Shown: one piece after another, positions 35,981-52,900 of the stretch
Position numbering within the stretch: the stretch's first letter is position 1
Layout of the letters: each line of letters begins with the position of its first letter
DNA from: Halorubrum depositum
Lineage (GTDB): Archaea > Halobacteriota > Halobacteria > Halobacteriales > Haloferacaceae
Direction: 5' to 3'
Assembly (NCBI RefSeq): GCF_007671725.1
Contig: NZ_VCNM01000001.1
Coordinates: 558,001 to 622,000, forward strand
Length of the DNA: 64,000 nucleotides
Made by a program: the position numbers and the translations under genes
The notes under the pieces: model-generated
The model's input: only the letters and a program-made list of their open reading frames with translations
Told to the model about the DNA's origin: nothing
Database searches by the model: none

Positions 35981-36031
35981 ATGGTCAGCCGCTCCCCCGC
36001 GCCGCGCTCCGCCCGGAGGCACCGATGGTAG
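35981..36031 (+). CDS. 16-codon leaderless upstream ORF, stop overlapping the next start
   Basis: MVSRSPAPRSARRHRW, then TAG. The ATG lies where the promoter would begin the transcript, and the TAG (36029-36031) overlaps the main gene's second codon, the main ATG being at 36025-36027. A ribosome finishing the small ORF would be on the next start, so translational coupling or attenuation is plausible. Arg-rich content is also expected by chance in this GC-rich DNA. Confidence 0.35.
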   Translation: MVSRSPAPRSARRHRW

Positions 36032-37374
36032 ACGTCGCGATCTCCGTCGGCCGAGTGGCCGCCGCGCTGGTGTTGGTGGTGCTGAACGGGTTCTTCGTGG
36101 CGTCGGAGTTCGCGTTCGTCCGGGTCCGGTCCACCTCGGTCGAACAGCTCGCCGCCGAGGGTCGGCCCGGGTCGGGAGCCCTCCAGGACGTGATGGGGAG
36201 TCTCGACGACTACCTCGCGGCGACCCAGCTCGGGATCACGCTCGCCTCGCTCGGGCTCGGGTGGATCGGCGAGCCCGCGGTGGCCGCGCTCATCGAGCCG
36301 GCGCTCGGGTCGGTGCTGCCGCAGAGCGCGGTCCACCTCGTCGCGTTCGCGATCGGGTTCGGCGTCATCACGTTCCTCCACGTGGTGTTCGGCGAGCTGG
36401 CGCCGAAGACGATCGCCATCGCGCAGGCCGAGCGGATCGCGCTCATGCTCGCCCCGCCGATGAAGCTCTCCTACTACCTGTTTTCCCCCGGCATCGTCGT
36501 GTTCAACGGGGCCGCGAACGCCTTCACGCGCGCCATCGGCGTCCCGCCCGCCTCGGAGACCGACGAGACGATGGGCGAACGCGAGATCCGGCGCGTCCTC
36601 GCGCGCTCCGGCGAGGCCGGTCACGTCGACCCCGGCGAGGTCGACATGATAGAGGGCGTCTTCGAGCTCGACGACACCGTCGTCCGCGAGGTGATGGTGC
36701 CGCGGCCGGACGTGGTGACGCTCGCCGCCGACCGGACCCTCCCCGAGATCCGCGCGACCGTGCTGGAGGCGGGACACACCCGCTACCCGGTCGTGGCCGA
36801 CGAGGACGCCGACCGCGTGGTCGGCTTCGTCGACGTGAAGGACGTGCTGCGCGCCGGCGAGGCCGGCGACGAGTCGGCGACGGCCGCGGACCTCGCGCGG
36901 GAGATCGTCGTCGTGCCCGAGACGACGGCGATCGGCGACCTCCTCGTCCAGTTCCGCGAGGAGCACAGGCAGATGGCCGCCGTCGTCGACGAGTGGGGCG
37001 CCTTCGAGGGGATCGTCACCGTCGAGGACATCGCGGAGGCGCTCGTCGGCGACCTCCGGGACGAGTTCGACGACGGCCGGGGCGAGCACACGATCCGCGC
37101 CCGCGAGGGCGGCGCGTACGAGGCCGACGGCTCCGTCTCCCTCTCGGTCGTCAACGACGCGCTCGGGACCGACCTCGAGGGGAACGGGTACGACACCCTC
37201 GGCGGGCTCGTGCTGGACCGGCTCGGCCGCACGCCGGAATCGGGCGACGTCGCCGAGGCCGGCGGCCACCGCTTCGAGGTCACCGCCGTGGACGGCGCCC
37301 GGATCTCGACGGTGCGTATCGACCGGATCGACGGCGACGGCGGTGTCGACGAACACGGCGGAGACGGCGAGTAG
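36025..37374 (+). CDS. CorC/HlyC-type transporter-associated membrane protein (DUF21-CBS-CorC_HlyC)
   Basis: 449 residues from ATG 36025. Residues 1-190 are the DUF21 (CNNM) membrane module: VVLNGFFVASEFAFVRVRSTSVEQL, YLAATQLGITLASLGLGWIGEPAVA and FGVITFLHVVFGELAPKTIAIAQAE. Two CBS motifs follow (about 210-330; MVPRPDVVTLAADRTLPEIR, VDEWGAFEGIVTVEDIAEALVGD) and a C-terminal CorC_HlyC domain. CNNM/CorC proteins mediate Mg2+ efflux with CBS sensing MgATP; in saturated-salt archaea a Mg2+ role is plausible. Not a true haemolysin despite the database name. Confidence 0.93.
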   Translation: MVDVAISVGRVAAALVLVVLNGFFVASEFAFVRVRSTSVEQLAAEGRPGSGALQDVMGSLDDYLAATQLGITLASLGLGWIGEPAVAALIEPALGSVLPQSAVHLVAFAIGFGVITFLHVVFGELAPKTIAIAQAERIALMLAPPMKLSYYLFSPGIVVFNGAANAFTRAIGVPPASETDETMGEREIRRVLARSGEAGHVDPGEVDMIEGVFELDDTVVREVMVPRPDVVTLAADRTLPEIRATVLEAGHTRYPVVADEDADRVVGFVDVKDVLRAGEAGDESATAADLAREIVVVPETTAIGDLLVQFREEHRQMAAVVDEWGAFEGIVTVEDIAEALVGDLRDEFDDGRGEHTIRAREGGAYEADGSVSLSVVNDALGTDLEGNGYDTLGGLVLDRLGRTPESGDVAEAGGHRFEVTAVDGARISTVRIDRIDGDGGVDEHGGDGE

Positions 37375-51394: not shown

Positions 51395-51404
51395 CCTTAT
51401 ATAC
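51395..51404 (+). promoter_or_regulatory. TATA box upstream of the DacZ-like gene
   Basis: ccttatatac centred 27 bases before ATG 51426, placing transcription start on that codon. Confidence 0.65.
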
Positions 51405-51425
51405 GCCCGTCACCTTCTCGGAGAC

Positions 51426-51473
51426 ATGAGCGTTCAGGAGAGTCGCGGGCGGCACGGCAGGGAGGCGGAATGA
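51426..51473 (+). CDS. 15-codon leaderless upstream ORF coupled to the DacZ-like gene
   Basis: MSVQESRGRHGREAE; its TGA (51471-51473) overlaps the DacZ-like ATG at 51470. The promoter spacing points to this ATG as the first base of the mRNA. A ribosome finishing it would be at the next start codon. Real as an open frame; function unproven. Confidence 0.4.
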   Translation: MSVQESRGRHGREAE

Positions 51474-52027
51474 GCCGGCTGGCGATCGAGTACGGCGCCC
51501 ACGAGCGCGTCAGGGAGGTCGTCGACCGTCTGACCTACTGCGCCGAGCACGTCAGCGTCGCGTTCGACGGCTGGGAGGAGCCGCACGTCAAGGGGCCGGG
51601 GCTGTACTTCGCGGTCGTCGCCGACCGCGGCTACGGCGCGTACGCCGACCCGATGGGCGACAACCGCTGGCCCCGCGAGAGCTGCGCGTCGGTGTTCGAC
51701 GAGGACGCCTTCGTGGACGCGGTCGGGTCGGTGAGCGTCGAGCAGGACGGCGGGATCGTCGTCGCCGTCGACGGCGAGATCGAGGAGCAGATGGTCCGCT
51801 TCCGCGACCTGGGCACCCGGAGCGGCGAGTCACAGCTCGTCGACGACGTGAGCTACGAGCCGTGGATGGGATCGCGACACATGAGCGCGATCGAGACCTC
51901 GGTCCGGCCGGAGGTCGTGGCGACGGTGACGCTGAGCGAGGAGACGGGGCGCGTGAGCCGCTTCCGCGACGGGGAGGCGACGTCGATGCGGCGCCACGAG
52001 CTCGGCGGCGAGTGGCGCGCGGAGTAG
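51470..52027 (+). CDS. dacZ: DisA_N/DacZ-like diadenylate cyclase domain protein with altered motifs
   Basis: 185 residues. Pattern ... EQDGGIVVAVDGEIEEQMVRFRDLG ... PWMGSRHMSAIETSVRPEVVATVTLSEETGRVSRFRDGE matches the DAC domain that makes c-di-AMP from ATP: DGA is DGG here (93-95) and RHR is RHM (136-138), while SEETG (156-160) is intact. Residues 1-60 (HERVREVVDRLTYCAEHVSV ... KGPGLYFAVV) form an added front region. c-di-AMP regulates osmolyte and K+ balance; DacZ is essential in Haloferax. The symbol is by family only; activity should be treated as open because of the two motif changes. Confidence 0.72.
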   Translation: MSRLAIEYGAHERVREVVDRLTYCAEHVSVAFDGWEEPHVKGPGLYFAVVADRGYGAYADPMGDNRWPRESCASVFDEDAFVDAVGSVSVEQDGGIVVAVDGEIEEQMVRFRDLGTRSGESQLVDDVSYEPWMGSRHMSAIETSVRPEVVATVTLSEETGRVSRFRDGEATSMRRHELGGEWRAE

Positions 52028-52417
52028 GTCTCGGACGCGGTCTCTGTCGCGATCCGCTTCGTTGGAGTCGTTCTCGTCTGAAACGGCCGGTCGCTGAGCG
52101 ATGCTTCCCGATCGGTGACGGGGATCGGTTTCGCGGTTGTTTGGCACTGTTGAAACCCGTAGAGACAGAGAGGTACTGCTTGGCGAAAGAGGGAATATAC
52201 AGTATCGAATACGACACCGGTAATCTGGACTAGTGCACTACCATCGGGGCATTCGGTCACATCGAATATTCTAGCCGTGTACACCGACAACAGCGATCAG
52301 AAGTCCCTAAGACTGACGAATTGATAGATGAGCGTTGACGCTACTTTCCGGATGCCGAACGGGGCTGAACCAAGAGCGATCAATCAATAAGGGTTGTAAC
52401 CACGAATGCCCACTAAA
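52028..52417. other. gene-free AT-richer stretch, part of a foreign-looking island
   Basis: 390 bases with no supportable ORF. Base use is AT-richer than the flanks. It holds the possible IS6-like end at 52143 and scattered TATA-like runs (gaatatacagtatcg, 52190-52204). I see nothing else interpretable. Confidence 0.4.
52143..52158. mobile_element. possible solitary IS6-family terminal sequence
   Basis: ggcactgttgaaaccc resembles the IS6-family terminal inverted repeat (IS26 ends ggcactgttgcaaa). I found neither a matching opposite end nor a transposase frame beside it, so at most this is a scar. Confidence 0.25.
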
Positions 52418-52720
52418 TCATGGACTGGTCCGTGGGAGGACGAAGAAATGAGTCCTCCACGAGTCCGTCCAGAGCCGTTCATCTAGCGGAGTAAACGCGG
52501 GTTCCAGCGCACCTAGCTGATTCTCGCGGACGGTTGGGAGACGCTCAGTCGGTCGTGAATCGAATATGTCGAGGTTTCTCGATTCGGTGAGCGGGACACG
52601 GTTCGCGATCTCATTCACACGCTTCCTGTCGGGGTGGTTGTTCCCCGAATCGTATCCTGCCCGTTCTAACTGGGCTCGCGGGAAGAGATGATGGCTTTGA
52701 ATTGCGTAACGTCTCCACCG
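52418..52720 (-). pseudogene. remnant of a DUF262/HNH (GmrSD-like) protein C-terminus
   Basis: A 100-codon open frame on the minus strand without a good ATG reads AIQSHHLFPRAQLERAGYD, then RVNEIANRVPLTESRNLDIF and LPTVRENQLGALEPAFTP. SHHLFP followed by an IAN-x-PLT motif is the HNH end (DUF1524-type) of DUF262 proteins, the family of modification-dependent GmrSD restriction factors. The N-terminal DUF262 ParB-like part is absent: a stop lies just upstream of the HHLFP block and the frame ends early. An internal GTG (52618) could start a smaller peptide. Interpreted as a decayed defence gene. Confidence 0.55.
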
Positions 52721-52762
52721 TCACAATCCAAGCCTTGCAGCTGAGCCGGTATGGATGACAAA

Positions 52763-52775
52763 TCATATAAATAAT
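52763..52775 (+). promoter_or_regulatory. TATA box upstream of the NTF2-FMO gene
   Basis: tcatataaataat is the strongest TATA-like run nearby and predicts transcription start near 52795. The main gene's ATG is 100 bases later, leaving room for the short ORF at 52805. Confidence 0.55.
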
Positions 52776-52804
52776 CATTAAGTAAGAGGCGAAATTTCAG
52801 AAAG

Positions 52805-52900
52805 ATGATGTTCTCTGGTGACCAAACCGACCAACCTGAACTGCAATCGGTACCGACACCCACTGTGGCGACCACCGAAGCGGAGGAAGTGGGCCGATGA
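52805..52900 (+). CDS. 31-codon ORF overlapping the start of the NTF2-FMO gene
   Basis: Starts MMFSGDQTDQPELQ and ends TEAEEVGR; its TGA (52898-52900) overlaps the FMO ATG at 52897 (ATGA). The predicted transcript start is about 10 bases before it. Its acidic, threonine-rich composition is plausible for a small haloarchaeal peptide. Together with 35981 and 51426 it is the same arrangement. Confidence 0.4.
   Translation: MMFSGDQTDQPELQSVPTPTVATTEAEEVGR

What the first reader, a model, noticed from the sequence alone, without database searches (positions are those of the whole stretch)
51395..51480. Leaderless 15-codon ORF placed exactly at the transcript start of the DacZ-like gene
The TATA box ccttatatac is centred 27 bases before ATG 51426; the small ORF (MSVQESRGRHGREAE) runs to a TGA that overlaps the ATG of the diadenylate-cyclase-like gene (ATGA at 51470). 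If right, the c-di-AMP-related gene is only translated through coupling to this mini-ORF, giving a handle for control by ribosome traffic or arginine/tRNA supply.
Basis: partly seen in the sequence, partly recalled or inferred. Interest (0 to 1): 0.5.

Follow-up and report, generated by a model that had tools for sequence, protein, structure and literature searches.

The report
Leaderless mini-ORF feeding ribosomes downstream
A tiny throw-away reading frame sits where the messenger RNA should begin and ends exactly on the start of the next gene; in the Halorubrum relatives examined its layout is conserved but its peptide is not, and the same layout recurs at other genes, which points to a ribosome loading ramp.

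Summary
In this Halorubrum window a TATA box (51396-51403) lies at the genome's usual leaderless distance before ATG 51426; a 15-codon ORF ends in a TGA overlapping the next gene's ATG (51470-51473). In 52 distinct Halorubrum loci the promoter-anchored start opens an ORF whose stop overlaps the gene start in 51 automatically and in one by eye; the gene's own ATG has no such promoter in 52 of 52. At least 18 length changes occurred but only 2 frame changes, both with a stop still inside the overlap. Peptides differ between clades (pN/pS 0.76-1.49); arginine sensing is not supported. The layout is conserved at three of five other genes tested; for one (CNNM) it reaches six other genera automatically, and its stop apparently fixes a rare GTA at codon 2. 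Best explanation: a leaderless landing pad delivering ribosomes by termination-reinitiation. The gene is a divergent DAC-fold protein; a stronger DacZ candidate lies elsewhere. Transcript start, translation and dependence are inferred. Coupled leaderless ORFs are published in mycobacteria; this conserved archaeal class is a new variant.

The parts
51396..51403 (+). TATA box CTTATATA of the mini-ORF promoter
   Evidence: model score 7.5 at ATG 51426 versus -9.0 at ATG 51470
51426..51473 (+). leaderless mini-ORF, 15 codons plus TGA
   Evidence: layout conserved in 52 distinct Halorubrum loci, 51 automatic and L088 by eye; peptide not conserved between clades
51461..51465 (+). Shine-Dalgarno-like GGAGG inside the mini-ORF, 4 nt before the gene ATG
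   Evidence: GGAGG within 25 nt in 36 of 52 loci, a 4-nt core in 10, none in 6
51470..51473 (+). ATGA overlap of mini-ORF stop and gene start
   Evidence: TGA at +1 in 41 of 52, TAG/TAA at +5 in 10 of 52, L088 TGA at +1 by eye
51470..52027 (+). gene for a 185-aa divergent DAC-fold (diadenylate cyclase-like) protein
   Evidence: Pfam DAC 22 bits, under cut-off; AF2 model pLDDT 86.4; Foldseek E 3.6e-7 to DacM/CdaA; VIA-align Z 12.6, 133 residues, rmsd 3.1 to 2fb5_A
35981..36031 (+). second class member in the window: 16-codon leaderless mini-ORF, ATGGTAG overlap
   Evidence: 30 of 30 Halorubrum loci examined and, automatically, 16 of 20 loci of other genera
36025..37374 (+). CNNM/CBS/CorC_HlyC membrane protein gene (449 aa) fed by mini-ORF 35981
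   Evidence: Pfam CNNM 170 bits; codon 2 GTA in 43 of 50 loci against 1.5% of Val codons
52805..52900 (+). third candidate in the window: 31-codon mini-ORF, ATGA overlap with the FMO-like gene at 52897
   Evidence: gene found in only 2 of 52 Halorubrum genomes; the other carrier also shows the mini-ORF on reading the sequence printed

Best explanation
The mRNA is expected to start at or within a few bases of ATG 51426 (inferred from TATA spacing), so ribosomes begin on it without a leader, translate a short peptide of no fixed sequence, terminate on the stop that overlaps the DAC-like gene's ATG, and reinitiate there, helped in most species by a GGAGG inside the mini-ORF. The mini-ORF thus acts as a leaderless landing pad for a gene that has no leaderless start and, by analogy with Haloferax, no working SD-driven start of its own. 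Shown by sequence comparison: promoter placement, frame and stop/start overlap kept while length and peptide turn over, and recurrence at other genes. Inferred: transcript start, translation, reinitiation, strict dependence, and any regulatory role.
For: Stop overlaps gene start in 51 of 52 Halorubrum loci by a frame-blind automatic rule, L088 by eye; promoter model above 3 at 0 of 52 gene ATGs. Lengths 40-77 nt; at least 18 length changes, 2 frame changes, 1 start-codon change on a tree of 51 coding sequences; 16 or more of 18 frame-neutral has P=1.7e-6 if indels ignore frame. Both frame changes come with TAG/TAA at +5. L038 and L088 have no cruF in the upstream DNA held and keep the mini-ORF. 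Same layout at other genes, distinct loci: CNNM 30 of 30 in Halorubrum and 16 of 20 in other genera, bPH_2 28 of 29, 569-aa protein 29 of 30; cruF, an operon-internal control, 1 of 29. CNNM codon 2 is GTA in 43 of 50 loci, while GTA is 176 of 11390 Val codons in the sample. In L211 the bPH_2 gene has lost its ATG and the mini-ORF is fused to it in frame. Background: strict coupling at nine H. volcanii genes and ample SD use for reinitiation in haloarchaea (PMC6728339, passages and Discussion read); SD does not drive 5'-UTR initiation (PMC3986360, abstract read); 72% leaderless transcripts (PMC4983044, passages read).
Against: No transcript-end, ribosome-profiling or reporter data for Halorubrum were available here. 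GGAGG is absent in 16 of 52 loci and any 4-nt core in 6. 19 of 52 start with GTG, and leaderless GUG starts are reported as weak (PMC4983044 passages). In ten loci the stop lies 5 nt inside the gene, so the ribosome would have to step back. In two of four length groups frame 0 has the lowest pN/pS (0.76 and 0.79), so some peptide constraint is not excluded. Of five other candidates taken to relatives one failed (RR195, 1 of 30) and one could not be judged; six more were not followed. Among 15 more distant DAC-like loci only 2 are coupled, both from one genus.
Confidence: 0.82

Rival explanations
1. The mRNA starts at the same place but the gene is translated de novo from its own SD; the mini-ORF is incidental.
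For: GGAGG 4 nt before the ATG in the window and GGAGG within 25 nt in 36 of 52 loci.
Against: Does not explain frame-neutral length changes and the conserved overlap; 6 of 52 loci have no SD core; SD does not drive 5'-UTR initiation in H. volcanii (PMC3986360 abstract).
Confidence: 0.07
2. The mini-ORF encodes a functional or sensing peptide, for example an arginine attenuator.
For: Arg is 20% of residues overall and frame 0 has the lowest pN/pS in two of four length groups; in the 569-aa family the first residues MTRxDA are shared.
Against: Peptides differ between clades, Arg count 1-7, pN/pS 0.76-1.49 and 0.89-1.61 in the other families; six leader RNAs fold no better than shuffles (z -0.26 to 1.83).
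Confidence: 0.04
3. Programmed frameshifting joins the mini-ORF and the gene into one longer protein.
For: Overlapping frames; six more distant relatives have a promoter at the gene's own start; L211 shows a true fusion in another family.
Against: The gene lies in different frames relative to the mini-ORF in different clades (stop +1 in 41, +5 in 10), so no single slip works. Slippery sites were not searched for.
Confidence: 0.03
4. Chance: a TATA-like string and an open frame with no role.
For: In the sample scan some candidates arise by chance (displaced controls 0-3 against 8 at threshold 6).
Against: 52-locus conservation and GTA at codon 2 in the sister example.
Confidence: 0.02

Closest known systems
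Mycobacterial leaderless 'coupled' small ORFs (RTGA), PMC4633059 (passages read)
   Same: Leaderless start at the transcript 5' end, stop overlapping the next gene's start; an example there keeps the layout while the peptide is not conserved.
   Different: Bacterial; the overlap there is defined as RTGA, whereas here TAG/TAA at +4 or +5 also serve; here one case is followed through 52 loci of a genus and another into other genera of archaea. There translation was measured, here not.
Termination-reinitiation at overlapping H. volcanii genes, PMC6728339 (passages and Discussion read)
   Same: 1- or 4-nt overlaps, SD inside the upstream ORF, haloarchaeal ribosomes.
   Different: Those pairs join native genes of an operon; here the upstream frame is short (mostly 11-50 codons) with no conserved product.
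H. volcanii uORFs in 150-250-nt 5'-UTRs, PMC4983044 (section 12 read)
   Same: ORFs of 15-31 codons ahead of a normal gene in a haloarchaeon.
   Different: 16 cases picked from 97 long leaders; the section makes no statement on stop/start overlap or conservation of layout. Here the mini-ORF fills the whole predicted leader.
E. coli 5'-terminal uAUG uORFs, PMC4965119 (abstract read)
   Same: An AUG at the mRNA 5' end before an SD-led gene, affecting downstream expression.
   Different: Bacterial; downstream genes there are canonically SD-led and the effect varied.
DacZ of H. volcanii, PMC6741144 (passages read)
   Same: DAC fold; the DG of the DGA motif and RHM align with this genome's DacZ candidate.
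   Different: 185 aa against a candidate of about 269 aa, DGG instead of DGA in Halorubrum (DGA in 14 of 15 more distant rows), below the Pfam cut-off.

Membership tests
Leaderless coupled small ORF (as defined in mycobacteria) | start codon at the transcript 5' end | tested here: inconclusive
   promoter spacing fits; no mapped transcript start
Leaderless coupled small ORF (as defined in mycobacteria) | stop overlaps downstream start | tested here: met
   window ATGA; 51 of 52 automatic, 1 by eye
Leaderless coupled small ORF (as defined in mycobacteria) | layout conserved, peptide not | tested here: met
Leaderless coupled small ORF (as defined in mycobacteria) | translated in vivo | not testable with these tools
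   needs ribosome profiling or reporters
Haloarchaeal termination-reinitiation pair | 1- or 4-nt overlap with SD in the upstream ORF | tested here: met
   window: 4-nt overlap and GGAGG; across loci GGAGG in 36 of 52, and 10 of 52 have the stop at +5 instead
Haloarchaeal termination-reinitiation pair | downstream translation lost when the upstream frame is stopped | not testable with these tools
   reporter experiment needed
Amino-acid attenuator leader | conserved run of regulatory codons | tested here: not met
   Arg 1-7 per peptide; no shared run in the peptides
Amino-acid attenuator leader | stable alternative RNA structure | tested here: not met
   six leaders of 85 nt, z -0.26 to 1.83
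DacZ / DAC | Pfam DAC above curated cut-off | tested here: not met
   22 bits against 27
DacZ / DAC | DAC fold | tested here: met
DacZ / DAC | DGA motif | tested here: inconclusive
   aligned position reads DGG in 19 of 19 Halorubrum rows, DGA in 14 and DGG in 1 of 15 more distant rows; it aligns with DGA of the genome's DacZ candidate
DacZ / DAC | makes c-di-AMP | not testable with these tools
   enzyme assay needed

The most novel reading that the evidence does not exclude
Haloarchaea carry a genome-wide, ancient class of leaderless landing-pad mini-ORFs whose peptides are waste; they load ribosomes onto genes that cannot start by themselves, constrain the first codons of those proteins through the overlapping stop, and serve as gates by which reinitiation efficiency or ribosome supply sets the level of low-dose membrane and second-messenger proteins.
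Probability: 0.3. Interest if true: 0.8.

Novelty: new variant of a known kind. Interest (0 to 1): 0.6.

Why it matters
Most H. volcanii transcripts have no leader and an SD site does not start translation at a leader there, so how genes with a start some way inside the mRNA are translated is open. A conserved class of leaderless mini-ORFs would answer that for some genes, is too short for usual annotation, and would explain odd constraints such as the rare GTA at codon 2. It can be tested with one codon change in a reporter.

Tried and rejected
Arginine or peptide sensing: no shared run of residues, pN/pS near 1. RNA structure: none beyond shuffles in six leaders. Frameshift fusion: relative frame differs between clades. 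Dependence on the cruF operon: L038 and L088 have no cruF in the DNA held but keep the mini-ORF. Strict CTTATATA as a genome-wide promoter model was too narrow and was replaced by a learned model. RR195 candidate rejected: competing in-frame leaderless GTG. The 52805 candidate has only two genomes. Six of the 12 scan candidates were not taken to relatives. For CNNM outside Halorubrum four of 20 loci were not called coupled: L262 has, on reading, a mini-ORF whose stop overlaps the gene start but no recognised TATA; L261 and L264 are ambiguous, each having such a mini-ORF and also an in-frame ATG at -54; L267 is a directly leaderless gene. In one search the overlap rule is permissive (stop within -4 to +9 of any gene-frame ATG, GTG or TTG). 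A sequence search of solved structures gave only a weak hit (2fb5_A, E 0.37). NCBIfam gave no family for the DAC-like protein. A first reading of the catalytic motif at residues 101-103 was wrong; the aligned position is 93-95.

Print: searches listed no paper whose title or shown abstract describes conserved leaderless coupled mini-ORFs in archaea; only listed rows were seen. Two Haloferax ribosome-profiling works could not be read (Gelsinger 2020, not held; Hadjeras 2023, not among the 10 of 27 rows shown) and may list single cases.

Full report
What is there. The window lies in a Halorubrum genome (G000:C1:558001-622000; all 31 named loci returned for the gene are Halorubrum). After the cruF gene (ends 51372) come a TATA box CTTATATA (51396-51403), ATG 51426, fifteen codons (MSVQESRGRHGREAE) and a TGA that shares ATGA (51470-51473) with the start of a 185-aa gene. 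A TATA model trained on 396 predicted genes in 464 kb of the same genome (window plus 20 stretches of 20 kb) scores 7.5 at 51426 and -9.0 at 51470.

Conservation. The gene was found in 52 of 52 Halorubrum genomes and in 31 named loci. From 81 loci with upstream DNA, 51 distinct regions remained after removing duplicates; L100 was added; G034 was not used because the gene begins at base 11 of its contig. In these 52, the best promoter-anchored ATG (33) or GTG (19), chosen without regard to frame, opens an ORF whose stop overlaps the gene's ATG in 51: TGA at +1 in 41, TAG at +5 in 9, TAA at +5 in 1. The automatic pick failed in L088, where the TATA is degenerate; read by eye it fits with TGA at +1. 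With the learned model all 52 mini-ORF starts score above 3, which is partly by construction because promoter match chose 51 of them, and none of the 52 gene ATGs does.

Selection on layout rather than peptide. On a tree of 51 coding sequences (SH-aLRT support only, 22 of 48 inner branches open; L088's length entered by eye) the mini-ORF length changed at least 18 times, the frame relation twice, the start codon once. If indels ignored frame, 16 or more of 18 neutral has P=1.7e-6; the count is a parsimony minimum on a partly unresolved tree. When the frame did change, a TAG or TAA at +5 of the gene served as stop (10 loci). H. vacuolatum (L038) shows a 30-base in-frame duplication. Peptides differ between clades (MSVQ.., MSVRVTD.., VTDGGNR.., METSV..). 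In the four length groups with at least four sequences (39 of 52 sequences) pN/pS is 0.76, 1.15, 1.49 and 0.79; it is the lowest of the three frames in two of the four. In the other three families it is 0.89 to 1.61. Six leaders show no stable fold. L038 and L088 have no cruF in the upstream DNA held (about 3 kb and 1 kb; L017 and L050 are too short to tell) and keep the mini-ORF, so it goes with the DAC-like gene.

A class, not a single case. In the 464-kb sample, 8 mini-ORFs with overlapping stops pass promoter threshold 6 against 0-3 in seven displaced controls; at threshold 4 it is 12 against 2-6. Of 276 genes with at least 60 nt upstream, 162 look leaderless, 10 mini-ORF coupled, 104 neither. 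Five of the other 11 candidates were taken to relatives; for four, the best 30 loci were classified. CNNM protein (window 36025-37371): 30 of 30 Halorubrum loci coupled. bPH_2 protein: 28 of 29 distinct loci; the exception, L211, has lost the gene's ATG with the mini-ORF fused in frame. 569-aa protein: 29 of 30. Response regulator RR195: failed, 1 of 30. The FMO-like gene at 52897 occurs in 2 of 52 genomes and could not be judged. Operon-internal control cruF: 1 of 29.

Depth. For the CNNM gene 20 loci from ten other genera were read: 16 were automatically coupled, in genera coded g6, g8, g11, g13, g18 and g20. L262 (g4) has the mini-ORF on reading but no recognised TATA; L261 (g19) and L264 (g16) are ambiguous because an in-frame ATG at -54 competes; L267 (g12) is directly leaderless. 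All lengths of the automatically coupled CNNM mini-ORFs (35 to 143 nt) are 2 modulo 3. Codon 2 of the gene is GTA in 43 of 50 loci, although GTA is 176 of 11390 Val codons in the sample; the TA with the next G or A supplies the mini-ORF stop. In six of the other seven loci ATGA or GTGA supplies it, and L267 is not coupled. The loci are related, so the 50 are not independent. For the DAC-like gene, of 15 more distant loci (14 from other genera, one a Halorubrum paralogue) 2 are coupled, 6 have a promoter at the gene's own start, 7 are unclear.

The gene. Pfam DAC is matched below cut-off. An AlphaFold2 model (pLDDT 86.4) matches diadenylate cyclases (Foldseek E 3.6e-7; VIA-align Z 10.1-12.6 for the top 40 rows, next fold Z 3.4). 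It aligns with the genome's stronger DAC gene on C2 at E 0.003: its DGG (residues 93-95) falls on DGA and its RHM (136-138) on RHM. DGG is in 19 of 19 Halorubrum rows, DGA in 14 of 15 more distant ones. Cyclase activity is open.

Mechanism. The evidence fits leaderless initiation on the mini-ORF and termination-reinitiation onto the gene. Background: nine of nine H. volcanii genes tested needed translation of the overlapping upstream ORF, and haloarchaea use SD for reinitiation rather than de novo initiation (PMC6728339, Discussion read; PMC3986360, abstract read). A short ORF that merely delivers ribosomes has been proposed (PMC12548453, passages read), and mycobacterial coupled leaderless ORFs with an unconserved peptide are described (PMC4633059, passages read). 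Whether the ramp is regulated is unknown; the GTG start of one clade (leaderless GUG being weak in PMC4983044) suggests that low output is tolerated or wanted, which is inference.

Noticed in passing
window 35981-36031 and 36025-37374: A second leaderless coupled mini-ORF before a CNNM/CBS/CorC_HlyC gene, conserved beyond the genus, with the rare Val codon GTA at codon 2.
   Followed up: yes
window 52805-52900: A third candidate mini-ORF with ATGA overlap to an FMO-like gene that occurs in only 2 of 52 Halorubrum genomes; the other carrier shows it too.
   Followed up: partly
L211 (G002), upstream of the bPH_2 gene: The gene's start codon is lost and the mini-ORF is fused to the gene in frame, a natural conversion of a coupled pair into a leaderless gene.
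   Followed up: partly
L123:13500-13586: The mini-ORF of the 569-aa gene shares N-terminal residues MTRxDA in many Halorubrum loci, although pN/pS is about 1.
   Followed up: partly
window 52000-52900: G+C falls from about 0.71 to 0.49-0.60 just after the DAC-like gene, before a gene rare in the genus; perhaps recently gained DNA.
   Followed up: no
L038:2927-2986: Tandem 30-base duplication inside the H. vacuolatum mini-ORF that keeps the frame and the overlap.
   Followed up: partly
G036, G035, G019, G031 and others: Several Halorubrum genomes carry one or two further DAC-like homologues of about 42-49% identity.
   Followed up: no
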